Positions 212-14,978 of a DNA stretch of 64,000 bases are shown piece by piece. Source of the stretch: Bradyrhizobium pachyrhizi (GTDB lineage: Bacteria; Pseudomonadota; Alphaproteobacteria; Rhizobiales; Xanthobacteraceae); the NCBI RefSeq assembly GCF_001189245.1, contig NZ_LFIQ01000039.1, positions 76,605 to 140,604 on the forward strand, given 5' to 3'. The notes beneath the pieces are model-generated. The model ran no database searches. It was not told the origin of the DNA and saw only the letters and a list, made by a program, of their open reading frames with translations. A program made the position numbers and the translations under genes. Numbering within the stretch: the first letter of the stretch is position 1; each line of letters opens with the position of its first letter.

Positions 212-895
212 TTATTCCAACCGCTTCCTACGTCGCCTTCGATAAGGGCGCAGCCTACGGCTGCCCTCCCGTACGGTGAAGGAAACCGCCGTCTGCACAC
301 CAAGCTCCTCCATGACCTCATTCAGCGACGTGATCAGCGGCTTGGTGAGGTCCCGCCCAATTCGCCGGTCGCCCTCTTCGCATCGCAAGCCATTGGCAAT
401 CAGTGAACCTACCGACTGGCCGCCTCCTTCCGAGTGCGGATTGAGATAGTCGCCAGCAGGATAGCAGGTGACGCCGTTCGGACCGTAAACCCACACGTAC
501 GAGGAGGACTCGGAGCGCTCCATCATCTTGCCGATCTGCTCCGGCAGCTTTGGGTCCTTTGCAGAGTGGTCCCACTTCGCCTGGGCGAGCATCCCCTTGC
601 TTACGTCCTTCCGATCTTCCGGGATAACAGCCACCGAAATATACACGTCGGCACCCACCTTCCCTTCGAGCGCTCCGCGGCCCTGAGCCGGGAAGTCCCG
701 CACCTCTACTTGGACGTTCAGGTCTCCGACATCCATCTTCTTGATCGTGTGCTCGATCGCACCCGCGATCTTCGAGGTGAGCTGCGGCTCCTGAGTGAGC
801 GCCTCATAATGTCCCTCCACGACCTCCGAAACGATGGCGTCGACGGCCTGCTCGATTGCCTGGAAGACGTGCTCTTTTTCTTCGTCCGTTGCCAT
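212..895 (-). CDS. Hypothetical protein, possible Mrr-like nuclease fold
   Basis: This 227-aa protein is not recognised as a named family. The N-terminal half is helical and acidic. The middle contains a strand-like stretch with an Asp (GADVYISV) followed about 20 residues later by GMLAQAKW. A D...QxK arrangement of this kind is seen in Mrr-like PD-(D/E)XK nucleases, so a nuclease or nuclease-like role is possible. The C-terminus ends in an Arg-rich tail. The ATG has a GGGGG ribosome-binding site 6 nt upstream. It lies 69 bp downstream of mcrC on the same strand, so it may be an accessory gene of the McrBC locus. Function unproven. Confidence 0.7.
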   Translation of the reverse strand: MATDEEKEHVFQAIEQAVDAIVSEVVEGHYEALTQEPQLTSKIAGAIEHTIKKMDVGDLNVQVEVRDFPAQGRGALEGKVGADVYISVAVIPEDRKDVSKGMLAQAKWDHSAKDPKLPEQIGKMMERSESSSYVWVYGPNGVTCYPAGDYLNPHSEGGGQSVGSLIANGLRCEEGDRRIGRDLTKPLITSLNEVMEELGVQTAVSFTVREGSRRLRPYRRRRRKRLE

Positions 896-964
896 GTTGC
901 CCCCAACTCAACACTACACGCAGGACGGGCATCCTGTCAGCGGACATTCTTCCGAAGGCGCCCC

Positions 965-2056
965 TCAGTCTCTAGCCCGAGCGATCGAGTGGAGCCGATC
1001 AAGGATGTCGGAAGGCTTGAGAGCCAAATCGACTGTGACGAACCGGATATCATGGCCTTGGATAGTGAATGTCTCATCCACATCATGGTCGAGCGCGGGA
1101 TAGAGAAGCACGCCTTCCGCCCTGTCGCATAGGGGTCCGCGGCCCCGTTGAGAGAGAAGATAAGCGTAGATCTGATAGATGTTGGCGCTCTTGAGTTTGT
1201 CCTTGTCGGCAATGCCTTTCGCGAGAATGCTGGTGAACTTGGTATCGATGACGATCCTGCGGTCCTGCCCTCTGTCCAGGATGATGTCCGGCTTCATTCC
1301 CGGCAGCAGGGCTACGTCGCCGGACCGGCCCGGCTCCAGTTGCCAGCTCTGATAATTCTGCTCACGCACGGACCAGCCATCGGCGGCACTCAAATGATGC
1401 CGATAGAACCCCGTGACCGCCTTCTCGAAGATCTTTCGCAGGGTGATCTCGTCCCGCCTGAGCCGCGACAGTTTCATGTCACCGGACGCTTCGTTCGGCA
1501 GCAGCATCTCGAACACGAGCCTGGCCGCGCTGACCATGAAGCGATCTTCGGATTGATGGCTTCCGATCGTGTCTGCGGACATCTCCTGTCGGGTTGGTCG
1601 GGACGCCGCAATGCCCAGCCGTCCGAGGTCGTCACCGAGTCGGCGGCAATCGGCGGCGACGGCACGATCCTGAATCCGTCCGGCGATCGCAATCAGCGCG
1701 CAGCGCACCAGCCGGTTTCGCGGAGTGTCGAACGACAACTCCTCAAACCGGCAGGCGAGCCGCCCGCGCTGCAGATGTTGGCGGGAGAGCGTCCGCAACC
1801 AATCCACCCGCCCTCTGACCCGCGGAATGATTGCTTCCCTGCGCTGATAGCCCCGCGACAGATTGGTCCTCAGTCGCCGTTTGACCAGCGTCACCAGCAG
1901 GCGACCCAGAATGTCGGCCAGCTCAATATCATCGTCCGTGCCTATTCCGCACTGGCTCTCGAACTCGGCGAGACCGGACGCATAGACAAGCAACAGCCAG
2001 AGGTTCCGAATCGGAATGCCTTTTTGGCTGCGCCAGGCCTGATCGGACATCTGCAC
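965..2056 (-). CDS. mcrC: McrC, nuclease subunit of McrBC restriction system
   Basis: 363 aa, a normal length for McrC. It is the nuclease partner that joins the McrB GTPase ring and cuts DNA carrying modified cytosines. The N-terminal region has the family pattern IPIRNLWLLLVYA. A PD-(D/E)XK site is visible as P256-D257 and D271-T-K273 (IVIDTKF), followed by the Q/Y segment NIYQIYAYL. The start is probably GTG at 2056, with GGGAC just upstream; an in-frame ATG lies two codons later. It begins 6 bp after the mcrB stop, so the two are surely cotranscribed. Confidence 0.92.
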   Translation of the reverse strand: MQMSDQAWRSQKGIPIRNLWLLLVYASGLAEFESQCGIGTDDDIELADILGRLLVTLVKRRLRTNLSRGYQRREAIIPRVRGRVDWLRTLSRQHLQRGRLACRFEELSFDTPRNRLVRCALIAIAGRIQDRAVAADCRRLGDDLGRLGIAASRPTRQEMSADTIGSHQSEDRFMVSAARLVFEMLLPNEASGDMKLSRLRRDEITLRKIFEKAVTGFYRHHLSAADGWSVREQNYQSWQLEPGRSGDVALLPGMKPDIILDRGQDRRIVIDTKFTSILAKGIADKDKLKSANIYQIYAYLLSQRGRGPLCDRAEGVLLYPALDHDVDETFTIQGHDIRFVTVDLALKPSDILDRLHSIARARD

Positions 2057-2062
2057 CCGTCC

Positions 2063-4267
2063 CTACAGGCAGGCCTGCAGAGTCTTGGTATGATCTTCCG
2101 CCTTGTCCCTCGCATCGTACCAATACTCCAGCAGCAACGGTCTGATCTCGGTCAGGATCACATTGCCGATCCATGTCTTCCATCGCGCGGCATCCATGCT
2201 CTCAGCCGGCGTGAGAAAGCTGTGACCGACACTGAACTGAGCACCGAGCGACTGGTCCGCCGCAATGGTCTCGTTCAACGCGACGATAGACTGCCTTAGG
2301 GCCTGCAGCAGTTCATCCGGAGCACCCCGCGCCTTGCAGTATTGCTGCCAGGCAGTTCCAAAATTGGGATTGAGGTTCACGAATGCGAAGCGGCGCCGCA
2401 AAGCGAGGTCGACGAGCGCCAGCGAACGGTCGGCAAGGTTCATCGTCCCGATGACATAAAGATTCGGCGGTACATGGACCCGCTCAGTCTGAGACATCGG
2501 ATAGGCCAGCCGGAGTGCCTCGCTCTCGCTGCGCTTGTCCGCCTCTAGCAGCGTGAGCAGCTCGCCGAAGATCTGCGCCGGGTTACCTCGATTGATCTCC
2601 TCGATCACCAGAACGTATGGCCTCGTGGGTTCTGCCTTCGCCGCTGCAACCGCTTCCAGGAAGGCGCCATCGACCAGTTGCAGGCCGGTGGTTCCGTTCG
2701 GTCGGTAGCCGCGGACGAAATCCTCGTAGGATAGTGAGGGCTGGAACTGCACAGCCATCAGTCGCGAAGGGTCTTTCTCGCCGATCAGCGCGTATCCCAG
2801 GCGCTTGGCGAGCCAGGTTTTGCCTGTTCCCGGAGGCCCCTGCAGAACTAGGTTCTTCTTCGTCTTCAGCAAGTCGATCGCTTGGTCGAGCGTCGCGCGC
2901 TCAAGGAAGCAGCCTTCATCGATGATAGCCTCAACCGTATAGGACGCTCCCGAGCTGGCTTCTTCCGCGATCATCTCGGGAGCTGCGTCGTCCAGCGCCT
3001 CAGCCGCGGCGTTGATCCGCCAGCGCTCCTCGAAATCCCGCGGCAGTGCGGATACATATTCCTGACCGTCGTCAGTCAGATACAGACGGTTGATGCCCTG
3101 AACAGTTTCGGCTCTCACGAGACCGGTGACTCTGGCCCACGCGATGATGTGCGACCCCGGCATTGTCGTGGTCCAGGTCGGCACCAGCGATTGCAGCCAT
3201 TTGGCCGCATCAGTCGTCCCCATCCCGTCGGGGCGCCGCGACAACTGAAGCAATAGATGCCCCATCCCGAAAACACGACCGACCAGCGGCGCACGCAGCA
3301 CTTCCGCTGGCTCGTTCGCGGTCAGCAGTTCAAGGCCGCGCTGCGTCGGCCGGTACGCCCCGTCGACGAGATGAATAAGTCCTAGTCCACCCGTGGCCTG
3401 CGAGATCACATTGGCGGCACTGTTCGTGTTGAGCTGCGGCGCTTCCGATAGGATCACGCTTGCGAGGTCGTCCCGTGCAATCCCGTTCTCCGCTTCGCGG
3501 ACGACCGCCACGAACACGCCGACCGCACCCTTCATGCAGGATAGGCTTCGCCGTTGAGCGGTTACAGGCAAAAGCGACAAGGGCGGTATGTCGCTCGCCT
3601 CCGGCTGCGCCGCCTCCACCGTCACCGCGCCTTCGTCGGGACGATTTAAATATTTATTCCAGAGAAACCACGCGAAGATCGACTGGTCGACCTCGCTGGC
3701 GATGTCAGGTGCGTTCCCCACCGAATCGCGGATCCGCTGCCGAAGCGCCGGGTGCTGGGCGATGAAGTCGCCGATCAGTCGCGGCGCACCGATCAGGCGT
3801 TGCGTGGCCCATACCCTGTTGGCATCCATCAGACAGGTCATGTCGCGCGGGAACATCGCGGCCATCAGACGGACCAGGCGCGCCTTAGGCCGGCGCTTGG
3901 CGTGAGCCGGATGAACCCTGGCCAGAACATGGTCGAACATGTCCTGTAGCCTCTTCCCGCGCTCGGCGAGATCGCTGCCGATCGGCGCGTCTCGGAACTG
4001 AAGAAGCTCACGCGAGATCGCAACGTCGGAATATGCACCTTCCACCGTGACCGAAGTGCCCGGCCCGATGTTGGAGATCGGATTCTCGTCCCAGAGCCTG
4101 CGCTGGAATGCGGGATCGAGCCATTGCGCCTCGTCCGCACTCTTCACCAGCTCGACATGCGCGGCGTATCTCTGCCGCCACTCCACTGCCCATGGCTCGT
4201 TCAAGTAAGCGCGGAACGGCCCGTTGAACGCTTCAGTCAATGCCTTATCATCGAATGAATCAACCAT
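2063..4267 (-). CDS. mcrB: McrB-like AAA+ GTPase of McrBC restriction system
   Basis: 734 aa. The C-terminal third is a McrB-type AAA+ motor: Walker A GPPGTGKT at residues 477-484, Walker B LVIEEINRG, and the GTP-binding signature MNLADRSL. It hydrolyses GTP and translocates DNA so that McrC can cut. The N-terminal 450 residues carry no DUF3578-type modified-base reader that I recognise. Instead, residues about 240-330 and 335-415 resemble two winged-helix domains. The substrate may therefore differ from that of E. coli McrBC. The ATG follows GAAGG. mcrC starts 6 bp after the stop. Confidence 0.9.
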   Translation of the reverse strand: MVDSFDDKALTEAFNGPFRAYLNEPWAVEWRQRYAAHVELVKSADEAQWLDPAFQRRLWDENPISNIGPGTSVTVEGAYSDVAISRELLQFRDAPIGSDLAERGKRLQDMFDHVLARVHPAHAKRRPKARLVRLMAAMFPRDMTCLMDANRVWATQRLIGAPRLIGDFIAQHPALRQRIRDSVGNAPDIASEVDQSIFAWFLWNKYLNRPDEGAVTVEAAQPEASDIPPLSLLPVTAQRRSLSCMKGAVGVFVAVVREAENGIARDDLASVILSEAPQLNTNSAANVISQATGGLGLIHLVDGAYRPTQRGLELLTANEPAEVLRAPLVGRVFGMGHLLLQLSRRPDGMGTTDAAKWLQSLVPTWTTTMPGSHIIAWARVTGLVRAETVQGINRLYLTDDGQEYVSALPRDFEERWRINAAAEALDDAAPEMIAEEASSGASYTVEAIIDEGCFLERATLDQAIDLLKTKKNLVLQGPPGTGKTWLAKRLGYALIGEKDPSRLMAVQFQPSLSYEDFVRGYRPNGTTGLQLVDGAFLEAVAAAKAEPTRPYVLVIEEINRGNPAQIFGELLTLLEADKRSESEALRLAYPMSQTERVHVPPNLYVIGTMNLADRSLALVDLALRRRFAFVNLNPNFGTAWQQYCKARGAPDELLQALRQSIVALNETIAADQSLGAQFSVGHSFLTPAESMDAARWKTWIGNVILTEIRPLLLEYWYDARDKAEDHTKTLQACL

Positions 4268-4375
4268 CCCCTCAGCCTTCCAAGCTTTGATTTCGTCTCA
4301 GATCGCGTTCGACTGCGCGACTTCTTCCGGCGCTTGCTACGGTCACATTCCACGACATTGATCGCAGATGCTACG

Positions 4376-4603
4376 CTAACTCTTTCGTCTCTTCTTGAGC
4401 AGCTTGCGACGAGCCGCCGCTCGCTTACCGGGAGGCGTCGAGCGCTTCGTCGGGTGGCGGCGGTTCTTGATCTTCGCCAGCCTGGCTAAATCCCTCTCCC
4501 GCTCGCCCGGGACGGCTGCACCGGCCACACCTCCTTCTCTATCTTTATTTGGTGTGCGCGCCTTGATGAGCCGGTTACGCTTTTCGTGGTTGATCTCGTT
4601 CAT
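4376..4603 (-). CDS. Small basic hypothetical protein
   Basis: 75 aa, about one third Lys/Arg, with a C-terminal run of basic residues (RRKLLKKRRKS). No family is recognised. It starts 5 bp after the stop of the GIY-YIG gene, with a GGGGGG ribosome-binding site about 9 nt before its ATG that overlaps the end of the upstream gene, so translational coupling is likely. No competing gene lies on the other strand. A nucleic-acid-binding or accessory role is inferred from composition only. It could still be a chance reading frame. Confidence 0.45.
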   Translation of the reverse strand: MNEINHEKRNRLIKARTPNKDREGGVAGAAVPGERERDLARLAKIKNRRHPTKRSTPPGKRAAARRKLLKKRRKS

Positions 4604-4608
4604 GGTGG

Positions 4609-5808
4609 TCAGCCCCCCTGGGTCTTGTCTGACCGCACTAGCGCTGCTGTTCTCGGATCGTACAGGTAATCGGTGATGGTACCATCTCTGATCCGGTCAA
4701 CAGCTTCGTTGATGACGAAGAGAGGCACGAGAAACCATTCGCGAGGAACCACCGGATGACCGAAGCGATCCTTGATCTCGATATCGAGCCGCGCAGGATC
4801 AAAGATGCGGTGGATGAGGTTTTCTAGCTTCGTCCGATTGATATTGGACAGCTTGTAGGTGGCGACGACCTCCACGTCGGCCAAAAGGAAGGTCGCATCG
4901 TTCTTCGCGTCTCCGATGCGTGCCTCAACCGTGCCGCCGGTGACCCCGATCTTGTGCAGCACATCGCGGTGGGACGCGACTGTCGGGTGGTCAGACTTGC
5001 TACGCAGTACATAGATCGTGCCGCTGGCCAAGTCGCCGTCTTCGCTCTCGCCGGAAAACAGCGGCCCCGCCGTGGGGTCGGTGATGCGCCGGCCCGCCTC
5101 ATCGCGGTGGAGGGCACGTTGCAACGAGCGCAATAGGACGTCGCTCTCGGTGCCGTTGTCGTAGATCACGCGCAACCGGCTATCGCGACGGTCGTACTCG
5201 GTCACAAATTCCTTGCCGGCTCCCGCGACATAGGCGATCTGGCCACCGACGATGAAAAACTCGCCCTCCTTGATCTCTGCCATCGTCTGGAACCGCCGCG
5301 TCTGGCGTATGCCGACATCGAGGTCTTTCCTCACCTGAACAAACAATGGCTTGAAGTTATTAAAGTCCTCGCAAGGCGTGCGGTTGGCGATTTCCTCAGC
5401 CGCACGCTTGTCGGCGGCGGTGCGCACATGGCGAAGCTCTGTAATGTCGGGCGCACCACCCATGCCTTCCAGTTCGGCTAGTAATTCATCGTTATCTATC
5501 AATTCGACCGGCTCGATGTCATTTGCCACCACGACAGCCAAGAGACCCTGCTTGTCGAGCGGGGTGAGAAGCGAACGGCATTCTTCTAGCCCACGTAGCC
5601 GATCGAGGCGCACGGCATAAAGCCGCTCGAATATGTCGTTGCTCTCGTCATGCGCTGGTGCGCGGCCGTGGGCTTCGGCGAAACGCTGGATTTCTTCGAA
5701 GCCCGCGATGATGCGTTCCTCGCGTGCGCTACGGCCGCCTTTCTTGTCCTGCGGGGCGAAATCGGCGAGGTCAGCCGCCAATTCATCGAGATCGAGGTCA
5801 TCCGTCAT
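4609..5808 (-). CDS. GIY-YIG nuclease family protein
   Basis: 399 aa from the ATG at 5808, chosen because a GAGGG site precedes it and the segment upstream of it is a shadow of the helicase gene. The C-terminal domain has the GIY-YIG nuclease pattern: GTIYVL at 263-268, HKIGVT at 285-290, Arg297 and the catalytic Glu329 in KLENLIHRIF. This is close to the T5orf172-type branch. The N-terminal 250 residues are acidic at first, then helical, and are unrecognised. It overlaps the helicase stop by 11 bp and is the third gene of the methyltransferase-helicase-nuclease operon. It probably supplies the DNA cutting activity. Confidence 0.85.
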   Translation of the reverse strand: MTDDLDLDELAADLADFAPQDKKGGRSAREERIIAGFEEIQRFAEAHGRAPAHDESNDIFERLYAVRLDRLRGLEECRSLLTPLDKQGLLAVVVANDIEPVELIDNDELLAELEGMGGAPDITELRHVRTAADKRAAEEIANRTPCEDFNNFKPLFVQVRKDLDVGIRQTRRFQTMAEIKEGEFFIVGGQIAYVAGAGKEFVTEYDRRDSRLRVIYDNGTESDVLLRSLQRALHRDEAGRRITDPTAGPLFSGESEDGDLASGTIYVLRSKSDHPTVASHRDVLHKIGVTGGTVEARIGDAKNDATFLLADVEVVATYKLSNINRTKLENLIHRIFDPARLDIEIKDRFGHPVVPREWFLVPLFVINEAVDRIRDGTITDYLYDPRTAALVRSDKTQGG

Positions 5809-7861
5809 AGCGGCCCTCTTTCTTGAAGCGCATGAACGCGACGGCGCCCTCGGCCATGCGTTTTTCCCAGGGGTCCTGGGCGTCGATGGAGGGCAACCTG
5901 CCTCGCTCCTTCTTGAACCTCGACGCGCGGACGGCAAGCTCTTTGGCCTCCTCTGGCGTCAGACTCGTGCGCTTGGCTCCAATCGCCGCCTCGACCTGCT
6001 TTAGAGCCTCCTCGTTCATGGTCTTGGCGAGGATGGCGTAGGCTTGGCCGAACGGGTTGATGCGGTCGATAAGATCGATATCAAGTTCGGTTACACTAAG
6101 GGCAAATTTGCGCACGCCGTCGATCAGGGCCGTATTGGCCTTTGGCTCAGTATCGTTTTCGCCGCCAAGCGCGATTTTTTTGGCCTGCTGCGTTACGTTA
6201 AGGGCGGCAATGGCGTGCTGACGCACAGCTTCCTGATCTTCCTCGTCAAGTTCGGGATACTTGTCCTTGATAATCTTCCCCATCCGCACCTGGGTCAGTT
6301 CCTCGGGGATCAGCTCCTCGTCGAACAGTCCGCGCTCGATGGTAGTTTTGTCCTGAACGAAGGCGGCGATAACTTCATTCAGATCCTCGGTGCAGATGCG
6401 TGCGGCTTCCTTGCTCTTGGGTTCGGCAAGGCCCTTGATCTCGATGTGGAACTGCCCGCTCTGCTCATTGAAGCCAACATTACCTTTGCTCGGATCGTAG
6501 CCACCTTCACCGTAGTCAAAGCCGTCAACCGGGCCGCTCTGCGGATTCTTTGGCGTGAAGTTGAAGCGCGGCGCGAGCACCTGTTCCATCAATAGGCTCG
6601 CGGCTATGGCTTTCAGCGTGTCGTTGACGGCCTCGGTGACCGCCTCCTCGGAAGCGTCCGGCTCGGCGATCAGATTAGTGAAACGGGCGCGGGTTTTGCC
6701 CGGCGCGTCACGGGTCGCGCGGCCGATGATCTGCACGATCTCGGTGAGGCTGGATCGATAGCCGACGGTAAGCGCGTGCTCACACCAAATCCAGTCGAAC
6801 CCCTCCTTGGCCATGCCGAGCGCAATGATGATGTCCACATGGTCGCGGTTGTTCTTCTGCGCGGGGTCTTTCAGTGCCGCTGAAACTTTGTCGCGCTTCG
6901 CGGGGTCGTCATCGACCAGATCGGCGATGCGCAGCACCTTTCCGTCCGGCCGCTTGACTAGCTGGAAGCCGGTCGCGGGGGCGACGCCTTGCCACTCGCC
7001 CAACGCCTCGATGATGTGTTCCACCTCCCTGATCTTATCTTTCGTGCTTTCGCGCGAATTGACGCTTGGGATGTGGATGATGGTTTTCTCATTTGGCTCA
7101 AGGACGCTCAGTATGTCGTCGGCGTAGGAACCGGAATAGAAGAAATAGCCGATGTCGAGTTGCTTGAGATATTCGTAGCCATTGAGTTGTTCGTAGTAGG
7201 TATAGGTAACAGGATCGAACTTCGCCTCGTCGTGCGGGGCCATCACCGGGACGGCATCGCCCCGGAAATATGAGCCCGTCATGGCGACGATATGCACCTC
7301 GTCGCGAGCGATGAACGCCCCGAGATGCTGGCCTAGCTTGCTCTCGGGGTCGGCTGAAACGTGATGAAACTCATCCACCGCGATCAGCCGCTTATCGAAC
7401 TTCTCGACCCCGAACTTGTCCACGGCGAAGCGGAAGGTCGCGTGGGTGCAGACTAGAACCTTGTCATCGCTGTCGAGGAACGCACCGAGAGAATTGACCT
7501 TGCCACCGTTGTCCGAGCCGGGCGCGTCGCAGAGGTTCCATTTGGGTACAACGATCCAATCGGCCGAAAAGCCGTATTTGGTCAACGGCTCATCATGGAA
7601 GCTGGCGCCGATGGATTTTTCCGGCACGACGATAATGGCCTGCTTGAGACCCTGATTGGCGAGCTTGTCGAGCGCAATGAACATGAGCGCCCGGCTCTTG
7701 CCGGAGGCGGGCGGCGACTTGATGAGAAGGTACTGCTCGCCACGCCGTTCATATGCGCGCTCCTGCATCGGCCGCATGCCAAGCGCGTTGGCCTTGGTCG
7801 ATGAACCGTTGCGGGCATAAGAAACCGAAACGGAAGGGATGACTTTCTTGTCGTCGATCAC
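5798..7861 (-). CDS. DEAD/DEAH-box SF2 helicase
   Basis: 687 aa. The helicase core is complete: Walker A SPPASGKS at 49-56, motif II DEFHH at 163-167, motif III-like MTGSYF, and motif VI QIIGRATRD at 377-385. The remaining 300 residues form a charged C-terminal region without a recognised domain. The start is a GTG whose GTGA overlaps the methyltransferase stop by 4 bp. The next gene overlaps its 3' end by 11 bp. As an ATP-driven DNA translocase between a methyltransferase and a nuclease, it resembles the motor subunit of a multi-protein restriction or BREX/DISARM-like system. Confidence 0.88.
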   Translation of the reverse strand: MIDDKKVIPSVSVSYARNGSSTKANALGMRPMQERAYERRGEQYLLIKSPPASGKSRALMFIALDKLANQGLKQAIIVVPEKSIGASFHDEPLTKYGFSADWIVVPKWNLCDAPGSDNGGKVNSLGAFLDSDDKVLVCTHATFRFAVDKFGVEKFDKRLIAVDEFHHVSADPESKLGQHLGAFIARDEVHIVAMTGSYFRGDAVPVMAPHDEAKFDPVTYTYYEQLNGYEYLKQLDIGYFFYSGSYADDILSVLEPNEKTIIHIPSVNSRESTKDKIREVEHIIEALGEWQGVAPATGFQLVKRPDGKVLRIADLVDDDPAKRDKVSAALKDPAQKNNRDHVDIIIALGMAKEGFDWIWCEHALTVGYRSSLTEIVQIIGRATRDAPGKTRARFTNLIAEPDASEEAVTEAVNDTLKAIAASLLMEQVLAPRFNFTPKNPQSGPVDGFDYGEGGYDPSKGNVGFNEQSGQFHIEIKGLAEPKSKEAARICTEDLNEVIAAFVQDKTTIERGLFDEELIPEELTQVRMGKIIKDKYPELDEEDQEAVRQHAIAALNVTQQAKKIALGGENDTEPKANTALIDGVRKFALSVTELDIDLIDRINPFGQAYAILAKTMNEEALKQVEAAIGAKRTSLTPEEAKELAVRASRFKKERGRLPSIDAQDPWEKRMAEGAVAFMRFKKEGRYDG

Positions 7862-10653
7862 GCGCTTGCCCCCGCCTTTTTCTTCTTCGTCGCTGTGCTC
7901 TTTCCAGCACCGGACGACGCGATCATCTTGGTGTAGAGATCAAACAGCTTTTCCAGCCGCTCAGTGTCGTTGCGGAAGCGGCGTCCGATGTAGATACGCT
8001 CAAGCACTTCGTCGTTGCGCTCATGCGCCGCGCGCAGATCGGCCGGCATCTTCTCCGGGTCATAGAGGTCGGCGATAGTCGCTGGGAAATGAGCCTCGCG
8101 CACCAGCAGGATGCCCTCAGCGCAGCGCGTGAGGTCGGCCTTGTTCTTGTCGGTGAGTGAGGGGACCGGAAATGTGTTCCAGCCAAGCGTGTTGGAATAG
8201 CGGAAGTCCGTTTTCATCTTTCCACACACCGTGGCAATCCAAACAAGATGCAAACGGGATGCGATCAGCGCCATGTTCCAGAGCGGCGCGTCGTAGAGAG
8301 CAAAGGCATTGTCGGACACGATGGAATGCTCTGACAGCAGGCCAACCGGTAGATAGGGGCGGCTTTCAGACGTGACCTTCGGAACGACGATGGATGACTC
8401 GTGACCTCGACCTTGAATCTGCTTGAAACGATGCGGGCGGTCGGCGAATGCCCGTGTTGATTCGGCATCGCTGGCCAGCCTCATTTCCCGAACACCCTCG
8501 AAGCGAGCGGCAACAAAACTCGATTGTAGCGCGGCATTGACCTCAGAATCTTCGATCCACAGGCAACGTCGGACAATTCCTTTTACGTACTCCTGCGATC
8601 CAACGAAGTCATAAACGAAGCGCGAGATTGCTGGCTCTGCCTTAGCCGCAGCCACTGCCTCATCGAAGGAGAGCAGAAGATTTCCTCCGTCTTTCGGCAT
8701 GTTCCCTAAATCCATGTAGGCTGTCCCGGATATCGACTTTTTTGAAGGCTGAATATCGATATCTCGCCCAGCAACAAGGTAGGCATTGATGTTGCTCGCC
8801 TCCTGCACCACCACTCTGCCGCCGTCATCAACCGAACATAGACGAGCTGCTCCTTGATGATGGTTAGAGATACCAACGATGATTACGGTCACGCCCGCAT
8901 TGTTGCTCGCAAGGTTCGACCATCTGAATGATGTATGAGCGAAATGAATTTTGTGGCCTGTGCTGAAGATCAGCGGCCACAGAATTGGAACTTGAACCCC
9001 CTGACATATTGAGTTTGTTGCCACCAACGCTGCGACGGCGCTCGTCTGCATGCCATAGTCTGCTGCCTTCATTATCCAGCCTGCCACGTAGTCAAGCGAC
9101 TTCCAGCTGTTCGTCCGACCGTCAAAGATCGCCTTGAGGTCGGACTTATGTTCATCCGTCTGCCATTTGCTGCCGAGATATGGCGGATTGCCGCATATAT
9201 AAGTTTCTCCGCCCTCGTTCTCGAAGTCGATCTGCGCCTGATCGAGCGGCGTGCTGAAAAGGTCGTCTCCGTGAAGCTTCACGCTCGCGCCCGTCGGCGG
9301 GCAGATGCTGAGCCAGTCAAGTCGTAGCGCATTGCCGCAGCTGATCCAGTTCTGCGCGTCGAGCGGCAAGAAGTCCTGCAAGGCTTCCTTCTGGCCCCGA
9401 TAGAGCACGTCGCACTGAAACTCGGCGATGATAAGCGCCAGCCGCGCGACCTCGGCTGGGAAGTCGCGCAGCTCGATGCCTCGAAAATTGGTAAGCGGAA
9501 TATCCGTGCGCCGGTCGGCCTCGCCGCGCTGCCTGTTGATCTCGGCCTCAATCTCCCGCATGGCCTTGTAGGCGATGACAAGGAAGTTGCCCGAACCGCA
9601 GGCCGGATCGAAGACCCTGATTTTCGCCATGCGATTGCGGAGGTTCAGCAGCTTGCGGGGATTGCAGTCCGCTTCCGTAAGCCGGGCGCGCAGATCGTCG
9701 AGAAACAGCGGATTGAGGGCCTTCAGGATGTTCGGCACGGACGTGTAGTGCATGCCGAGCGCGCCGCGTTCCTCGTCCTCGGCGACGGCCTGGATCATCG
9801 ACCCGAAGATATCCGGATTGATCTTCGTCCAGTCGAGACTGCCGATATGCAGAAGATACGCGCGGGCGATCTTGCTGAATCGCGGCGTGTTCACGCTGCC
9901 GGAGAACAGTTCGCCATTCACATAGGGAAAGGCATCAGCCCATCGGGGAATGCCCGCGCTCGCTCGGTCCTCCCGCTTAGTGTTCATGGAGCGGAACAGT
10001 TCGCCGATCACTTTATGGGTGTCGGACGAGTCCTTGGCGCTCATCCGGGCGATGGTGTCGGTGAACAGGTCTTTGCCGCTGAAAATGTCGGTGTCCTCGG
10101 CGAAGAAACAGAAGATCAGCCGCGCCATGAAATGGTTCATGTCGTGGCGGCGCGCCGCGGTGCCCCAATCGGGATTGTCTTTCAGAAGCTCGACATAGAG
10201 CCGGTTCATGCGGCTGGTGGCGCGGATGTCGAACGAGCTTTCGCGGACCTGCTTGACGGTGGTGATGCCCGCGAGCGGCAGGAAGAATCCGAAGTGATCG
10301 GGGAAATCGGCATAGGCACAGGCGACGGTTTCGCCGGTGTCAAAATCCTCCGCTTCGAAGTCTGCGCCGTCGGTCGCGAGGATGAAACGCGCCTTCGCCT
10401 TCGCCGTGGCCGGGCTGGCTTTCAGCGCGGCCAGGGTCTTCGTGACCGCGCCCGGCACGGAGACAGCGATGTGAATGTGGTTCCGTTGCAGGACGCCGCC
10501 CAGATCGGAGCTATTCGACGCGCCCGCTCTGAGCTTCTTGATCGTCGTTTCCTTATTGCCGAAGGCTTGCAGAAAAGCGAACGGGAACTCGACGCCGCTG
10601 AACGGCTGCTCGGCCAAGGTCGATATTGCTTCTTCAATTTCGACGGCGTTCAT
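7858..10653 (-). CDS. MmeI-like class I SAM-dependent DNA methyltransferase
   Basis: 931 aa from the ATG at 10653, which follows GGGCGGGGG and gives the N-terminus MNAVEIEEAI; the longer frame to 10722 lacks a ribosome-binding site. Motif I FDPACGSGNF lies at 348-357 and the catalytic NPPY at 489-492, the pattern of an adenine N6 methyltransferase. A region downstream (DLGNMPKDGGNLLL, then RCLWIED) resembles the MmeI target-recognition domain. MmeI itself is a fused nuclease-methylase; I see no D-ExK nuclease site in the N-terminal part here, so cutting was probably handed to the GIY-YIG partner. It is the first gene of the operon; an AT-rich stretch upstream (10723-10800) may hold the promoter. 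Confidence 0.9.
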   Translation of the reverse strand: MNAVEIEEAISTLAEQPFSGVEFPFAFLQAFGNKETTIKKLRAGASNSSDLGGVLQRNHIHIAVSVPGAVTKTLAALKASPATAKAKARFILATDGADFEAEDFDTGETVACAYADFPDHFGFFLPLAGITTVKQVRESSFDIRATSRMNRLYVELLKDNPDWGTAARRHDMNHFMARLIFCFFAEDTDIFSGKDLFTDTIARMSAKDSSDTHKVIGELFRSMNTKREDRASAGIPRWADAFPYVNGELFSGSVNTPRFSKIARAYLLHIGSLDWTKINPDIFGSMIQAVAEDEERGALGMHYTSVPNILKALNPLFLDDLRARLTEADCNPRKLLNLRNRMAKIRVFDPACGSGNFLVIAYKAMREIEAEINRQRGEADRRTDIPLTNFRGIELRDFPAEVARLALIIAEFQCDVLYRGQKEALQDFLPLDAQNWISCGNALRLDWLSICPPTGASVKLHGDDLFSTPLDQAQIDFENEGGETYICGNPPYLGSKWQTDEHKSDLKAIFDGRTNSWKSLDYVAGWIMKAADYGMQTSAVAALVATNSICQGVQVPILWPLIFSTGHKIHFAHTSFRWSNLASNNAGVTVIIVGISNHHQGAARLCSVDDGGRVVVQEASNINAYLVAGRDIDIQPSKKSISGTAYMDLGNMPKDGGNLLLSFDEAVAAAKAEPAISRFVYDFVGSQEYVKGIVRRCLWIEDSEVNAALQSSFVAARFEGVREMRLASDAESTRAFADRPHRFKQIQGRGHESSIVVPKVTSESRPYLPVGLLSEHSIVSDNAFALYDAPLWNMALIASRLHLVWIATVCGKMKTDFRYSNTLGWNTFPVPSLTDKNKADLTRCAEGILLVREAHFPATIADLYDPEKMPADLRAAHERNDEVLERIYIGRRFRNDTERLEKLFDLYTKMIASSGAGKSTATKKKKAGASA

Positions 10654-10837
10654 CTTGCCCCCGCCCACCCGAATTCCGGAAAGGACCGCTGATGTAAATG
10701 CGGCCGGACTTTCCCACTCCATAAAAGCAGATATATTTTTTGGAGCGATTCCCGAGAAAACATAGGTCTTTCATAGACTTCAACGGCCGCGGTAATTCAA
10801 GGAAATTTTGGGAAATTTGCACTACCATTCTGAAGGT

Positions 10838-10878
10838 GTCCCGCTGTCCCACACCCTAAGGCAGCGGGACAGCGGGAC
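10838..10878 (-). terminator. Long hairpin after the RepA-like gene
   Basis: A 13-bp perfect inverted repeat, GTCCCGCTGTCCC at 10838-10850 and its complement at 10866-10878, lies 8 bp past the stop of the RepA-like gene. There is no clear T-run. It could terminate transcription or serve as a replication- or binding-site palindrome. Confidence 0.45.
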
Positions 10879-10886
10879 AGCGGTCG

Positions 10887-11900
10887 CTACTCCTTCGGCT
10901 CAGCCGGCTTGGCCTTCTTCGCTCGCTTGGCCTTCTTCAACAGCCGGTCAACCCTGGACTTGCTCATCGACAGCTCTTTGCCGATCTCGCGGGTGCTCTT
11001 ACCCGCTTCCGACAGCTCCAGCACCTTCTCCACATCCTCTGCGTCTTCGCTCTTGAGATCGGTGCATACCCACCGGGCCGCCCCGTCTTCGTCCAGTTCG
11101 AGCTTCGCCTCGAACGCCAGGGCATCCTCGCCGAACACCCCTCGCGCCTTGGTCAGGTGCACCTCGAAGCGTGCCCCTTCACCGGGATCATAGTCTTCGG
11201 GGTGCTTGAGCTGGATCACCGTGTCGAGCACATCCTCCCGCTTGGACGTGCCCCGCGCATTGCCGCCTCGGCCGGCGTGATGCACGACCAAGACGGTGAC
11301 CCCGCGTCGCCGCAACTGGAGCAGCCAGGCCTGCATCGAGATCCAGGACTCGGCATCGTTCTCCGCCCCGCCGTTGACGAGGGTCGACAAGTTGTCGAGA
11401 ACCAAAAACTCCACGCCGTCCAGATGCGAATTGATGGCCTCCTGCTGCTTCGGATCAGCCAGATTGAGGGACGTCCCCAGCGGCTGCCGGTCCATGCACA
11501 GGAGGCGGAATGCGCCATCCGGTGGATGGCGCCCTCCTTTCATCGTCGCTAACAGGCGGTCTTGCAGGGCCTCCTGAGGCATCTCTCCATCGACGTACAG
11601 CACGTTGCACACCCTTTCCGCTCGCCAGCGCAGGAACTCGCCACCGCAGCTCACGGCATAAGCGATGCCCAGGGCAACGTGGGTCTTACCGATGCCTCGC
11701 CCTGCGAACAGCATGGCCAGACCTCGTTCCGGCAGGATCGGATCGAGCACCATCCTCCGCGGGGGCAACTTCAACTTCGAAAATTTGCTGACGCAGATCG
11801 TGTCGAGCGTGAGAGCTTGCTCCTCCGCTTCGACTTCGTCATCGCCAACCCGGTCGTCGAAATCGGCTCGCTCGTCGAAATCGAATACCTGATCATCCAT
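10887..11900 (-). CDS. RepA-like AAA family ATPase
   Basis: 337 aa. It matches the RSF1010-RepA/DnaB-type hexameric ATPase group (AAA_25): Walker A AGRGIGKT at 66-73, Walker B FLVLDNLS, and VLVVHHAGRG as the later sensor motif. Residues about 300-325 look like a helix-turn-helix (TREIGKELSMSKSRVDRLL), ending in a Lys/Ala tail. In plasmids and integrative elements such proteins act as replicative helicases. Here it is the last gene of the island's control block and overlaps the upstream helix-turn-helix gene by 8 bp. No primase or relaxase is visible next to it. Confidence 0.82.
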   Translation of the reverse strand: MDDQVFDFDERADFDDRVGDDEVEAEEQALTLDTICVSKFSKLKLPPRRMVLDPILPERGLAMLFAGRGIGKTHVALGIAYAVSCGGEFLRWRAERVCNVLYVDGEMPQEALQDRLLATMKGGRHPPDGAFRLLCMDRQPLGTSLNLADPKQQEAINSHLDGVEFLVLDNLSTLVNGGAENDAESWISMQAWLLQLRRRGVTVLVVHHAGRGGNARGTSKREDVLDTVIQLKHPEDYDPGEGARFEVHLTKARGVFGEDALAFEAKLELDEDGAARWVCTDLKSEDAEDVEKVLELSEAGKSTREIGKELSMSKSRVDRLLKKAKRAKKAKPAEPKE

Positions 11901-12216
11901 GTCGGCTACCCTTCTCGTCTTCAGTCAACACGGCTCGCCAGCAATTGACACGTCGACCCGCTCGGCTGAGGCGACGCTCTCCCGTCTGCTCCACCTCTCT
12001 CGCGTAGTGCGCCTCGGCCAGACGGGGCCGGACTGGCAACAGGCTGAGCCCGAAGTGCTCCGCGATCTCATCCGCGGTGCGGCCCTTGGGATACTGAGAC
12101 TTCAGGTAGGCGACGATCTGCTTGCGCAGAACGCGCGCTCGGCCGCGCACCGCGATTGCGGCTTCCTGGCTGGCCCCGGGGGTCTTGTAGCCCGGCATGT
12201 TCGGGTAGCTGCTCAT
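11893..12216 (-). CDS. Small helix-turn-helix protein
   Basis: 107 aa from the ATG at 12216, which has a strong GGAGGTG ribosome-binding site. The segment GRTADEIAEHFGLSLLPVRPRLAEA (about residues 45-70, cited as the motif region) has helix-turn-helix spacing. The rest is basic. It overlaps the AlpA-like gene by ATGA (12213-12216) and the RepA-like gene by 8 bp, so the three are translated as one unit. It is probably a regulator or replication accessory protein of the island; the partner is unknown. Confidence 0.7.
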   Translation of the reverse strand: MSSYPNMPGYKTPGASQEAAIAVRGRARVLRKQIVAYLKSQYPKGRTADEIAEHFGLSLLPVRPRLAEAHYAREVEQTGERRLSRAGRRVNCWRAVLTEDEKGSRHG

Positions 12217-12461
12217 CGCCGCACCTCCGACGTCGATCGCACCAACGGGCCGATCTTGCCCCGAGCCCAAGCGTCGAGACCGGAAACCGGATACAGCGGG
12301 AAGCGGCCAGCCAGCCTGAAGGGCGGCCCCTCTGAGCTGATGCACGCCAGCTTTGCCAGCGTTTTGGGCGAGCAAGGCAGGTTGTAGGTCTCTACGATAT
12401 ACTTTGCTGCCTCCATTCGGCGCAGGTGACGCTCGTCTTCAATTTCGCTCTTGGTATCCAT
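12213..12461 (-). CDS. AlpA/excisionase-like DNA-binding protein
   Basis: 82 aa. The fold suggested is a small winged helix: MEAAKYIVETYNLPCSPKTL, then a wing (GPPFRLAGRFPLYP) and a last helix, the layout of AlpA or excisionase-like proteins. Such proteins bend DNA at attachment sites or switch on integrase genes. The ATG has a GAGG site 6 nt upstream. It is the first gene of the overlapping three-gene block ending in the RepA-like ATPase. An excisionase or activator role for the nearby integrase is inferred from position. Confidence 0.72.
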   Translation of the reverse strand: MDTKSEIEDERHLRRMEAAKYIVETYNLPCSPKTLAKLACISSEGPPFRLAGRFPLYPVSGLDAWARGKIGPLVRSTSEVRR

Positions 12462-12570
12462 CAGAACCTCACAATGTCGCGGATCAATTTCCGTGATTGC
12501 GGGTCTATCTCGCTACCCATGTCGCCGTCGCCCGATTGATACCGAGCGCTTCCGATCGTTTCCGATCGAA

Positions 12571-13449
12571 TTATCGCGCACTATTTTGGGACGTTCTCTT
12601 GCGGAACCGTTTAGCCAGACGCTCGACCTTGCTCTCGATTGTACCAGCGCCATGGGCTCGGCTGCTCACCCTCTTCGCAGCCTCTTCTGGAGATGCCACG
12701 CTTAGGTTTTTGAGAAGCGCTGCCATCTCGTCGAGGAGAGGCTCGTCGAGAGCCGCGTAAGAGCCCTGCCCCTTCTTCTTGCCCGGGCTAGATCTTAGGA
12801 TGATTTCAGGTTCTGCGACCGGTCGCGTTTCAACGGTCGGATTCTGCGCAGGCCACACTGCCATGACTTCATCACGAGGAAATCGCGCATCGGTGTACTT
12901 TCGCCTGTCGCCGACGTAGATCGGCAGTTCGAACCATTTGTCGGAGTTCCTGACCTCCAAACGTGACCAGCTGTACGCTTCGATCTTGACTTCGTTGCCT
13001 TCAAGATCAAGCGCTATCGCCGATATCTTCCCCTCACTAGCGGCTGCGTGAACAGACCGTATTGCGTCTGTAAGGGACACCGACGGCACCTTCGGACCAT
13101 CAACCGCCTCTCTGTCGGACGCCGCCCATGAAGCCCGCCTCGCGAACGCCCCCAACACGCGAATGTTCGCGGGCACCCAGTGCTTAATGTCTAAGGTCGT
13201 CACACCGTTCGCGGTCCTGGGCACATGATCCCAGCAGTATTTCCGATACTCATCCCAAAACGTGAGGACGACGTCCAAGTCGCGCCACGATATCCAAGCT
13301 ATGACCATTGGATAGGTCCAAAAGGCCACCCTTCCTGGATCGAACCTCGCTGAATCTGGACGATAGGACGCACCCTTAGGCTTGGCACCGGGCGCCGGGT
13401 TTTCGATCTTTACTGGCTTCTTCAAGAGCCCTCCGCAGAGCCGCCGCAA
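12571..13449 (-). CDS. Hypothetical island protein
   Basis: 292 aa, not recognised. It has a central Trp-rich stretch (WTYPMVIAWISWRDLDVVL), no signal peptide and no membrane segment strong enough to call. The C-terminus is basic, ending KRFRKRTSQNSAR. It sits between the integrase and the AlpA-like gene, a position often taken by element-specific regulators or host-interaction proteins. The longest frame begins with TTG at 13449; another TTG at 13425 is close to a GGAGGG, so the start is uncertain. Confidence 0.65.
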   Translation of the reverse strand: MRRLCGGLLKKPVKIENPAPGAKPKGASYRPDSARFDPGRVAFWTYPMVIAWISWRDLDVVLTFWDEYRKYCWDHVPRTANGVTTLDIKHWVPANIRVLGAFARRASWAASDREAVDGPKVPSVSLTDAIRSVHAAASEGKISAIALDLEGNEVKIEAYSWSRLEVRNSDKWFELPIYVGDRRKYTDARFPRDEVMAVWPAQNPTVETRPVAEPEIILRSSPGKKKGQGSYAALDEPLLDEMAALLKNLSVASPEEAAKRVSSRAHGAGTIESKVERLAKRFRKRTSQNSAR

Positions 13450-13513
13450 AGTGACGACGCGGCAGGCTGGTGCGGACCAGCTTTTCGGGAGCTACCCTAG
13501 CCGCGCCGATTGA

Positions 13514-14782
13514 TCAGGCCTTGCGAATTTGACCGACCTTGCTTTGTTTCTTGCCTGTCATGGCATCATCGATGTGTCTGGCGACACGATCGGCGGCCGC
13601 AAGGAGGGCGGTATCAATCAGGTGAATATAACCTTCCGTCACGCTCGACCGCGAGTGGCCAACTAGGGCCTTGATCGTTGGGATCGAGAAACCGAGATCC
13701 TCAGCCGTAGAGCTAAATGAATGGCGCAAACCGTGGCAGGTAATGCCAGGAACATCCTCTGCCGATATCTTCTGAAGCCAACGGGTCAACCCGGTATGGT
13801 GCTTGCTGTTGGTCGTTATCGCAGGAAAGACGTACTTCGACTGGGACTTCGCCATGGCTTTCTTTAGGATTGCGATCACTGCCGAGCCCACGGGCCGGAC
13901 GCTCTTGCCGGTCTTCGTCTTGCCTAACCTGAGGGCCATTCCGACTGTGTCGACTTCGGTCTTGAGAAGGCCTTCTACTTCATCGAGGCGACAGCCGGTC
14001 ATAGCTGCCGCGCGGCTCGCCTGCATTCGCTGCCAGTGCTCGCCGTTTGCCTCCGCCATCGCGAGACACTTGCCCAGCTTGCGATAACCGGCATCGTCCA
14101 AGCGCCACTCGCGAGTTCCATCTTTCGGTCGAATGATGCCGTTTACAGGGTTGTCAGGGCGATATCCCTCACGGACCGCGTAGCTGAAGATGCCACCAAG
14201 AAGACCCATCGTACGAGCTGCGGTACCGTTCCCACCAGTGACGATCGCGCGTCCGCGCTCTTTCGTTTTGACGTCGGCGGCAGATTTCCCGCTCATTACG
14301 TCTCGCATGAAACGACCGGCATCAGCAGCAGTGAAGTCCGCGACGGTGCGGTTCCCAATGAGGGGAACGATGTGCCGCGTGACCCGCCCCTTATCGCTGT
14401 AGACGGTCGTAACGCTCTTCGTCACGCCGCGGCGCGTCAGTATGAGGCCCCGCTCAGCCTTCTCCATGTACTCCTGACAAAGCTCCTCGATCGTCATAGC
14501 ACCGCGGGCGAGCTTCCGGCTTTCCGCTGGGTCAGCCCCCTTCACAACCTCCGCCAGGGCGAGCTTGGCTGCTTTGCGGCCCTCTTCTGCGGTCAGCACC
14601 CCATACCGTCCCAAGGTGAGGCGCCGGCTTCGGTTGTTGGCATTTCGATACTGGACGACGAAGGACTTGACCCCGCTCTTCTTGACCCTCAAACCGAAGC
14701 CGGGAATTTCATCATCCCAGATGAAGAGGTCGCCGCCTGCAGCGGTGGCTGCATCGGCAATGCGCTTGGTGATCTTGGGCAT
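13514..14782 (-). CDS. Tyrosine-type site-specific integrase (P4 family)
   Basis: 422 aa. It has an N-terminal DUF4102-like arm-binding domain (residues 1-85), a core-binding domain, and a catalytic domain with all key residues: R265 in [10 protein letters not shown]350-x-x-R353 in HGLRHSF, H376 in GHSRSS and the nucleophile Y385. It recombines the island with the 3' end of tRNA-Arg. The ATG at 14782 has no Shine-Dalgarno sequence; the paired TGCTTACC repeats lie directly before it, so integrase binding there could also control its own expression. It is 146 bp from the tRNA fragment. Confidence 0.95.
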
Positions 14783-14783
14783 G

Positions 14784-14928: not shown

Positions 14929-14978
14929 TTGCCCTCCGAAGGCAAAGGTCACACGTTCGAATCGTGTCGGGTGCGCCA
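14929..14978 (+). other. attR: displaced 3' half of tRNA-Arg(CCG)
   Basis: The sequence folds as the right half of a tRNA: anticodon stem TTGCC/GGCAA around loop CTCCGAA (anticodon CCG), T-arm ACACG-TTCGAAT-CGTGT, 3' acceptor CGGGTGC, G and CCA. Nothing upstream gives a D-arm or a 5' acceptor strand, so it is not a working tRNA. This is the expected remnant when an element integrates into a tRNA gene and rebuilds the intact gene at its other end, here to the left of the window. Confidence 0.85.

What the first reader, a model, noticed from the sequence alone, without database searches (positions are those of the whole stretch)
4609..10653. Three-gene MmeI-like methyltransferase / SF2 helicase / GIY-YIG nuclease operon
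The genes overlap by 4 and 11 bp and read as one unit. The methyltransferase looks like MmeI, which normally carries its own nuclease, but I see no D-ExK site in its N-terminus; the operon instead carries a separate helicase and GIY-YIG nuclease. This suggests a self/non-self system in which modification, DNA translocation and cleavage are split over three proteins, related in logic to BREX or DISARM but not matching either in gene content. I cannot tell whether it already has a name.
Basis: partly seen in the sequence, partly recalled or inferred. Interest (0 to 1): 0.78.

Follow-up and report, generated by a model that had tools for sequence, protein, structure and literature searches.

The report
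Split restriction-modification system on mobile element
Three overlapping genes encode a DNA-marking enzyme that has lost its own DNA-cutting site, plus a separate DNA motor and cutter; this trio is already known from Bacillus as dnmA-yeeB-yeeC, is carried here on a 15-kilobase mobile element rich in defence genes, and its target-reading part is swapped between relatives, as expected of a working immune system.

Summary
In detail: an MmeI-family methyltransferase (10653-7858), an SF2 helicase (7861-5798) and a T5orf172/GIY-YIG protein (5808-4609) overlap by 4 and 11 bp, and the methyltransferase lacks the MmeI nuclease triad. But the system has a name: the dnmA(yeeA)-yeeB-yeeC cluster of Bacillus subtilis, long suspected of being a Type I-like restriction-modification system. 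So: new member of a known kind. What I add: (1) in 398 genomes of the window's phylum, YeeB occurs in 23, among them all 20 with a readable nuclease-dead MmeI-type enzyme that I fetched; none of 15 triad-bearing relatives has yeeB nearby; (2) the target-recognition segment is exchanged as a cassette (flanks about 88-90% identical in DNA, cassette bins 46-64%, against a Nitrobacter plasmid); (3) the dnmA-yeeB junction holds at least 150 bp of extra DNA, mostly genes, in 50 of 108 operons, the yeeB-yeeC junction in none that is intact; (4) YeeB's C-terminus and YeeC's N-terminus share a module; (5) operon and mcrBC share a 14,968-bp element in a tRNA-Arg gene. Best reading: ATP-dependent restriction-modification, modification in one protein, translocation plus cleavage in a YeeB-YeeC unit. 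Nothing I read shows cleavage; B. subtilis tests were negative.

The parts
7858..10653 (-). dnmA/yeeA-type MmeI-family DNA adenine methyltransferase, 931 aa (DPACGSGNFL and NPPY present), no D-E-K nuclease triad
10174..10653 (-). N-terminal MmeI_N domain (residues 1-160): nuclease-derived, catalytic residues replaced
   Evidence: Pfam MmeI_N 7.3e-34; alignment
8175..9185 (-). exchanged target-recognition cassette (about residues 490-827): gap in an otherwise about 90% DNA match to Nitrobacter hamburgensis plasmid 2
5798..7861 (-). yeeB-type SF2 helicase/translocase, 687 aa; ASGKS, DEFH and QIIGRATR motifs
5828..5947 (-). YeeB C-terminal copy of the shared module (residues about 639-677)
4609..5808 (-). 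yeeC-type T5orf172/GIY-YIG protein, 399 aa
5593..5712 (-). YeeC N-terminal copy of the shared module (residues about 33-72)
4687..5022 (-). GIY-YIG (MUG113/T5orf172) domain of YeeC; Y266, K286, G288, R297, E329 invariant in 51 rows
4376..4603 (-). small basic ORF, 75 aa, between yeeC and mcrB; a gene is annotated at the same place in the Nitrobacter copy; no match in 163 other loci
2063..4267 (-). McrB-like AAA+ protein (companion cargo, not part of the trio)
965..2056 (-). McrC (companion cargo)
212..895 (-). 227-aa protein of unknown family behind mcrC (companion cargo)
10887..11900 (-). AAA_25 ATPase (RepA-like, label recalled) of the mobile element
13441..13507 (-). int-alpA RNA (RF02996)
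   Evidence: 48.9 bits, cut-off 35.8
13514..14782 (-). tyrosine integrase of the element
14929..14978 (+). right attachment site: 3' part of tRNA-Arg(CCG); its first 30 bp recur just left of window base 1 (contig position 76565)

Best explanation
[quoted passage not shown] DnmA reads an asymmetric target through an exchangeable target-recognition cassette and methylates an adenine on one strand (inferred from MmeI and B. subtilis DnmA). When DnmA, or a complex of it, meets unmodified target DNA, it hands the DNA to a YeeB-YeeC unit: YeeB, a DNA translocase, moves along DNA and YeeC, a GIY-YIG nuclease held to it, perhaps through the module that both share, cuts. The former MmeI nuclease domain of DnmA has become a docking or signalling domain. 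As only one strand of an asymmetric site is marked, I predict that cutting needs two unmodified sites in opposite orientation, as argued for MmeI and reported for Type ISP. Shown here: anatomy, loss of the cis nuclease, linkage, cassette exchange, invariant active-site residues, shared module. Inferred: complex formation, translocation, cleavage, site-orientation rule.
For: Trade of a nuclease in cis for yeeB-yeeC in trans: 0 of 111 yeeB-linked MTases keep D-E-K, 15 of 17 unlinked keep it; eight genomes with triad-bearing enzymes have no YeeB anywhere. Linkage: 23 of 398 genomes have YeeB, among them all 20 whose fetched MTase is readably triad-less. Active-site residues invariant: YeeB G54 K55 S56, D163-H166, Q377 G380 R381 R384 in 43 rows; YeeC Y266 K286 G288 R297 E329 in 51 rows. 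Cassette: 607 of 666 DnmA pairs with backbone identity of at least 0.80 (64 loci, pairs not independent) have under 0.55 over residues 490-830, 5 have 0.75 or more; sharp DNA break against the Nitrobacter copy. Shared module: hhalign score 41.1; 60 column shuffles at most 15.1; other non-overlapping windows at most 13.3. Junction asymmetry: at least 150 bp between dnmA and yeeB in 50 of 108, between yeeB and yeeC in 2 of 119, both from split ORFs. RhuM genes of the kind found in the dnmA-yeeB gap stand behind the MTase gene of Type I or Type III-like operons in 6 of 6 plasmids inspected. The YeeB model matches SF2 motors, Type ISP LlaBIII and EcoR124I HsdR among them. PMC9973331 reports, citing Piel et al., that dnmA or yeeB deletion raised sensitivity to some phages in Vibrio crassostreae.
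Against: B. subtilis: no growth defect on dnmA loss, no effect on transformation (PMC7261158), no effect of dnmA, yeeB or yeeC deletion on three phages and no depletion of the motif in phages (PMC9973331); its authors call it a relic. No cleavage or translocation assay was seen. Some copies look broken: split genes in L060, L096, L114, L122, L124, L148, L194, and yeeB or yeeC cut short inside the contig in L101, L184, L186, L188. Foldseek gave no PDB match with E of 0.001 or less for the YeeC model; its Slx1 match is weak (Z 5.3, rmsd 4.4, 98 aligned). The shared module could be a DNA-binding repeat and not a joint. I did not align the B. subtilis proteins themselves.
Confidence: 0.72

Rival explanations
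1. Orphan regulator with a dead restriction half: DnmA methylates DNA for gene regulation; yeeB and yeeC are relics, as proposed for B. subtilis.
For: B. subtilis tests negative for restriction and phage protection (PMC7261158, PMC9973331). Split or shortened genes in L060, L096, L101, L114, L122, L124, L148, L184, L186, L188, L194.
Against: Catalytic residues of YeeB and YeeC are invariant over 43 and 51 rows from several phyla by record title; among 35 full-length MTases in the methyltransferase-selected loci, the only triad-less ones without yeeB in the stretch were L071 (cut N-terminus) and L042 (yeeB 7 kb away); the recognition cassette differs among close relatives, which would scramble a regulon but suits an immune system; V. 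crassostreae deletions matter (as cited in PMC9973331).
Confidence: 0.14
2. Phage exclusion of BREX/DISARM/Pgl kind: DnmA marks self and YeeB-YeeC block phage replication or act on replication intermediates without classical site-dependent cleavage.
For: Weak profile hits of DnmA to DrmMI and PglX and of YeeB to PbeA models; MTase-plus-helicase make-up; PMC9973331 says any phage mechanism must differ from canonical RM because the motif is not depleted.
Against: No BREX or DISARM core protein among the ten element proteins scanned with Pfam and six with PADLOC; a GIY-YIG domain with conserved active site is present.
Confidence: 0.1
3. Plain Type IIG/IIL enzyme (MmeI-like, cutting by itself) with unrelated neighbours.
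For: PADLOC Type IIG model 2e-283; 38% identity of B. subtilis DnmA to MmeI quoted in PMC7261158.
Against: Triad absent; yeeB-yeeC linked; B. subtilis DnmA lacked endonuclease activity (PMC7261158 citing Morgan 2009).
Confidence: 0.02

Closest known systems
dnmA(yeeA)-yeeB-yeeC cluster of Bacillus subtilis and relatives (Morgan 2009 as cited; PMC7261158; PMC9973331)
   Same: Gene order MTase-helicase-T5orf172; MmeI-family MTase without nuclease motif; found in defence neighbourhoods and horizontally acquired DNA.
   Different: The B. subtilis copy appears inactive in restriction and reportedly lacks stretches of the YeeB and YeeC C-terminal regions (PMC9973331); the window copy is intact, on a recognisable element, beside mcrBC.
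MmeI, Type IIL restriction-modification
   Same: MTase, spacer, TRD and C-terminal domains; one-strand modification of an asymmetric site (from the MmeI literature).
   Different: Nuclease triad lost; helicase and nuclease supplied by other genes.
Type ISP enzymes (LlaGI, LlaBIII)
   Same: Nuclease, SF2 translocase, gamma-MTase and TRD combined for an asymmetric site; head-to-head logic is expected to be shared (PMC3874165, passages).
   Different: ISP is one polypeptide with an Mrr-like nuclease; here three polypeptides and a GIY-YIG nuclease.
Type I restriction-modification
   Same: ATP-dependent motor, separate modification and restriction genes, exchangeable TRDs, RhuM-type genes inserted behind the MTase gene.
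   Different: TRD fused to the MTase, no HsdS; no nuclease family found in the motor subunit.
BREX and DISARM
   Same: Adenine MTase plus helicase.
   Different: Core genes (pglZ/brxC; drmA/drmB) not seen among the proteins scanned.

Membership tests
DnmA-YeeB-YeeC cluster | MmeI-type MTase without D-ExK | tested here: met
DnmA-YeeB-YeeC cluster | SF2 helicase (YeeB) first downstream, T5orf172/GIY-YIG (YeeC) second | tested here: met
DnmA-YeeB-YeeC cluster | direct sequence homology to the B. subtilis proteins | tested here: inconclusive
   B. subtilis rings for PF20473 and an Acetobacter homologue is annotated YeeB, but the B. subtilis sequences were not aligned
Type IIG/IIL (MmeI) | nuclease active site in the same polypeptide (D70, E80, K82) | tested here: not met
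Type I RM | HsdR with nuclease and motor in one chain, separate HsdS | tested here: not met
   Pfam finds no nuclease in YeeB; the TRD is in DnmA
Type ISP RM | single polypeptide | tested here: not met
   three ORFs; no ORF hit two profiles in 123 loci
Type ISP RM | translocation, cleavage at head-to-head sites | not testable with these tools
   needs biochemistry
BREX | PglZ and BrxC present | tested here: not met
   ten element proteins (Pfam), six (PADLOC), seven (NCBIfam): none; small ORFs and the rest of the window were not scanned
DISARM | DrmA, DrmB, DrmC present | tested here: not met
   only DnmA hits DrmMI models, through the shared MTase fold
GIY-YIG nuclease superfamily (YeeC) | conserved Tyr, (Y)IG, Arg, Glu | tested here: met
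   Y266, K286-I-G288 in place of YIG, R297, E329; Pfam MUG113 and T5orf172 over cut-off; motif definition recalled

The most novel reading that the evidence does not exclude
DnmABC is a widespread, active and still unclassified type of restriction-modification: Type ISP-like logic taken apart into three proteins, with a swappable target-recognition cassette, a repurposed dead nuclease domain as docking platform, a GIY-YIG cutter tied to its motor by a shared module, and a cargo slot between modification and restriction genes that collects further defence genes; the B. subtilis copy studied so far is the exception.
Probability: 0.5. Interest if true: 0.65.

Novelty: new member of a known kind. 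Interest (0 to 1): 0.45.

Why it matters
The member studied most closely in the papers I could read looks dead, so the cluster has been called a relic. Cassette exchange, invariant catalytic residues and near-complete linkage say that most copies are alive. It would add a restriction system in which recognition/modification, motor and GIY-YIG cutter are separate proteins, show how an MmeI-type enzyme can lose its nuclease and keep its role, and point to the dnmA-yeeB gap as a place to look for new defence genes. It also warns that a profile-based classifier (here a PADLOC Type IIG model) labels such MTases as self-contained restriction enzymes.

Tried and rejected
BREX/DISARM membership: rejected on gene content. 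Single-chain Type IIG: rejected on the triad. ORF fusions between the three proteins as evidence of contact: none in 123 loci. PDB sequence search with YeeB and YeeC: no hit up to E 1. Foldseek with the YeeC model: no match at 0.001 or less; best rows are EF-P/eIF5A folds; VIA-align 2 places them on residues about 168-246 at Z about 5 together with CarD, UvrD1 and other Tudor/SH3-like folds, so that range may hold an SH3/Tudor-like barrel; weak, not used in the argument. A conserved fourth gene: the small ORF behind yeeC has no match in 163 other loci. Phage-encoded copies: 3 partial or remote matches in 50,697 phage records; 43 IMG/VR loci exist but may be prophage or plasmid DNA. A loose pattern for D-x-ExK in the first 160 residues matches 16 of 111 linked proteins, each time away from the aligned site, and was replaced by the alignment columns.

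Rows left out: in the triad count only MTases of 860 aa or more (128) were scored; shorter or split ones (e.g. L048, L055, L057, L060, L069, L070) were not. L071 lacks its N-terminus and L042 had yeeB outside the fetched stretch; both count as unlinked without triad. Loci were reduced at 95% YeeB identity before junction counts (144 to 125 groups). Of the RhuM hits I chose 6 of the 14 listed (45 matched) for inspection, leaving out those without annotation under the match and near-duplicates, and two others; one of the six already showed a Type I name in the list. L197, L198-L203 as DNA, and L204-L233 were fetched and not analysed further.

Papers not held: Morgan 2009, Makarova 2011, Gao 2020 and the DOI I tried for the Piel work; they are cited only through other papers. 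Papers seen only as passages: PMC9973331 (plus its section 8), PMC7261158, PMC4833311, PMC3874165, PMC12988326, PMC12458937, PMC9258068, PMC6712171, PMC9519451, PMC8432527.
Full report
What is there. Three intact minus-strand ORFs overlap by 4 and 11 bp: an MmeI-family methyltransferase (10653-7858, 931 aa), an SF2 helicase (7861-5798, 687 aa, GTG start) and a protein with a C-terminal T5orf172/MUG113 domain (5808-4609, 399 aa). The methyltransferase matches all five Pfam MmeI domains and aligns with the solved MmeI 5hr4 in two stretches, residues 87-450 and 485-913.

It has a name. An annotated plasmid homologue is labelled 'restriction/modification system component YeeB', which led to B. subtilis dnmA(yeeA)-yeeB-yeeC. 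PMC7261158 (passages) says that DnmA belongs to MmeI homologues that lack the endonuclease motif and are flanked by yeeB- and yeeC-like genes, and that a Type I-like RM system was suggested (Morgan et al. 2009). PMC9973331 (passages and its section 8) shows the conserved order, finds no anti-phage effect for three phages in B. subtilis, and reports that deletions in Vibrio crassostreae (Piel et al., bioRxiv 2021) raised sensitivity to some phages. Morgan 2009 and the DOI I tried for the Piel work were not held, so I rely on these citations. The finding is a member of a known family.

Nuclease in cis, or helicase and nuclease in trans. I searched 398 genomes of the window's phylum (unnamed; taken to be Pseudomonadota) by MmeI_Mtase profile, fetched 40 loci, strong hits first plus ten weaker ones, and looked for YeeB and YeeC nearby. 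MmeI's catalytic residues are D70, E80, K82 (PMC4833311, passages). Counting these, the window and the yeeB-selected loci together, 128 full-length proteins were scored: 0 of 111 yeeB-linked ones keep the triad; 15 of 17 without yeeB keep it. Of the two others, L071 is cut before the site, and L042 has yeeB about 7 kb downstream, outside my fetched stretch. In the methyltransferase-selected set with the window (41 loci): 18 linked without triad, 15 unlinked with triad, these same two, and 6 not scorable. Eight genomes with triad-bearing enzymes searched whole (G392, G012, G016, G305, G301, G231, G078, and G113, whose triad is seen) hold no YeeB. An independent search of the same draw with a YeeB profile found it in 23 of 398: all 20 genomes with a readably triad-less MTase (19 scored, L060 seen), two whose MTase is cut at a contig end (G314, G375), and G195, itself a fragment at a contig end. 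Weak MTase hits that I did not fetch were not examined.

Order and spread. DnmA, YeeB and YeeC pass my thresholds together in 74 of 80 and 28 of 43; wherever DnmA and YeeB are both present after reduction they have the same strand, DnmA first (108 of 108). DnmA is missing in 17 loci; in 16 the locus begins within 1.3 kb of yeeB, the exception being L183. In L101, L184, L186 and L188 yeeB or yeeC is cut short inside the contig, so broken copies exist. The record titles span Proteobacteria, Firmicutes, Verrucomicrobia, Acidobacteria and Bacteroidetes; several are metagenome bins. In plasmids 264 of 72,556 records match; in the window's genus 6 of 60 genomes, its own included, have a match, one of them a 39-residue remnant and one in two pieces, as for a mobile trait.

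A swappable target-recognition cassette. Conjugative plasmid 2 of Nitrobacter hamburgensis X14 carries the same block, dnmA-yeeB-yeeC-small ORF-mcrB-mcrC-227-aa gene, beside a CBASS-like set. BLASTN aligns window 1-955, 959-8175 and 9185-11357 at 88.7, 88.1 and 90.4% identity; between 8175 and 9185 nothing aligns, and 300-bp bins of a global alignment fall to 0.46-0.64 there (other low bins are the ends and 4500-4201, 0.67). That stretch is residues about 490-827 of DnmA, from the NPPY motif to the end of the target recognition domain. Over 93 operons, 666 pairs (64 loci, not independent) have backbone identity of at least 0.80; 607 of them have under 0.55 over residues 490-830 and 5 have 0.75 or more. 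One pair shows the converse, a more similar cassette (0.85) on a less similar backbone (0.72). This is what diversifying selection on target specificity produces in restriction systems. I found no statement of it for this family in the searches (listings, plus the passages named); specificity change in MmeI enzymes themselves is known.

A cargo slot on one side only. After reduction at 95% YeeB identity, 50 of 108 operons have at least 150 bp between dnmA and yeeB; between yeeB and yeeC it is 2 of 119, and both come from split ORFs (L122, L194). In the methyltransferase-selected set it is 9 of 22, counting L042. Not every gap holds an obvious gene: of 47 gapped loci on the tree below, 37 have an ORF of 100 aa or more running with the operon, and in 24 of these the first one overlaps the dnmA stop by 4 bp; 44 of 53 inserted ORFs of that size are co-oriented. 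On a FastTree of 103 YeeB proteins, presence or absence of a gap needs at least 25 changes (quick tree). Recurrent inserts include RhuM (PADLOC PDC-S05), DUF1016/YhcG nuclease (PDC-S02), PDDEXK_4 (PDC-S26), an AlbA_2/HATPase protein, a T5orf172-like protein below cut-off, and five families whose representative has no Pfam hit. PDC candidates come from a guilt-by-embedding survey (Payne 2024, as cited in PMC12988326). RhuM is in the same position in ordinary RM operons: of 45 plasmid records with a match, 14 were listed and I inspected 6; in 6 of 6 it stands directly behind the methyltransferase gene, five with Type I subunits annotated nearby and one Type III-like by my reading. So modification gene, insert, restriction genes is a plan shared with classical ATP-dependent RM, and the uninterrupted yeeB-yeeC pair behaves like one unit.

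A shared module. YeeB residues about 639-677 and YeeC residues about 33-72 align by profile (score 41.1, probability 95%); 60 column shuffles reach at most 15.1, YeeB windows not overlapping the site at most 11.9, other YeeC windows at most 13.3. In the YeeC model it lies in a confident helical part (28-84). It may join motor and nuclease or be a duplicated DNA-binding element; the data do not decide.

Enzymes that look alive. YeeB keeps its helicase motifs invariant in 43 rows, and its model (pLDDT 74.5) has an SF2 double-RecA core; VIA-align 2 ranks Mfd first (Z 22.2, rmsd 3.9, 331 aligned), and Foldseek lists Type ISP LlaBIII and EcoR124I HsdR among its top rows, which is general SF2 similarity. 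YeeC keeps Tyr266, Lys286, Gly288, Arg297 and Glu329 in all 51 rows; the domain matches Slx1 weakly (Z 5.3, rmsd 4.4, 98 aligned).

The element. A 30-bp direct repeat lies at 14929-14958 and at contig position 76565, just left of the window. Joining the flanks gives an intact tRNA-Arg(CCG). The element is 14,968 bp, repeat to repeat: 227-aa gene, mcrC, mcrB, small ORF, yeeC, yeeB, dnmA, AAA_25 ATPase, smaller genes, an int-alpA RNA and an integrase. In the Nitrobacter plasmid a 47-bp stretch identical to window 14932-14978 lies next to the 227-aa gene, so the same element, or its end, was there once.

Mechanism and doubt. A one-strand mark at an asymmetric site leaves unmarked sites after replication; PMC3874165 (passages) argues that MmeI-type enzymes solve this by needing opposed sites, and states that Type ISP enzymes need two head-to-head sites. 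The same rule is my prediction here, and it bears on the negative B. subtilis tests, where target number but not orientation is mentioned in the passages I read. No cleavage by YeeC, no translocation by YeeB and no complex is shown in anything I read.

Noticed in passing
window 1-14978 and about 40 bp to its left: A 15-kb integrative element in tRNA-Arg(CCG) whose cargo, apart from one unknown gene and a small ORF, is defence genes (DnmABC plus McrBC).
   Followed up: yes
window 212-895 (-): 227-aa protein behind mcrC with no Pfam or PADLOC hit and no convincing NCBIfam hit; by eye it has a GAD...LAQAK stretch like a PD-(D/E)XK nuclease. Only 3 plasmid records match, one in the same block on a Nitrobacter plasmid.
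   Followed up: partly
L035 8215-8973 (+): 252-aa ORF with a YMDD motif, reverse-transcriptase-like by eye, inside a 7-kb insertion between dnmA and yeeB.
   Followed up: no
L107, L111, L130, L139, L151 (dnmA-yeeB gap): Five recurrent insert families whose representative has no Pfam hit (CL3, CL4, CL1, CL5, CL8): candidates for new defence genes by their position.
   Followed up: partly
L039 8-2004 (-): McrB- and McrC-like genes (58% and 44% identity to the window's) stand downstream of yeeC here too, with a PDDEXK_4-type gene in the dnmA-yeeB gap.
   Followed up: no
PADLOC model PDLC03598: This Type IIG model matches the nuclease-dead DnmA at 2e-283, so classifier output could report a self-contained restriction enzyme.
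   Followed up: partly
L062-L066: A second MmeI-like group of about 1150-1280 aa, 115-123 bits to MmeI_Mtase, all five with the D-E-K triad and no yeeB nearby.
   Followed up: partly
PMC9258068 (passages): yeeA, yeeB and yeeC names appear beside blaOXA-23 in Acinetobacter transposons Tn2006 and Tn2009; not examined here.
   Followed up: no
L234 2935-6921: A CBASS-like set (cyclase, AAA ATPase, SAVED protein) a short way upstream of the DnmABC-McrBC block on the Nitrobacter plasmid.
   Followed up: no
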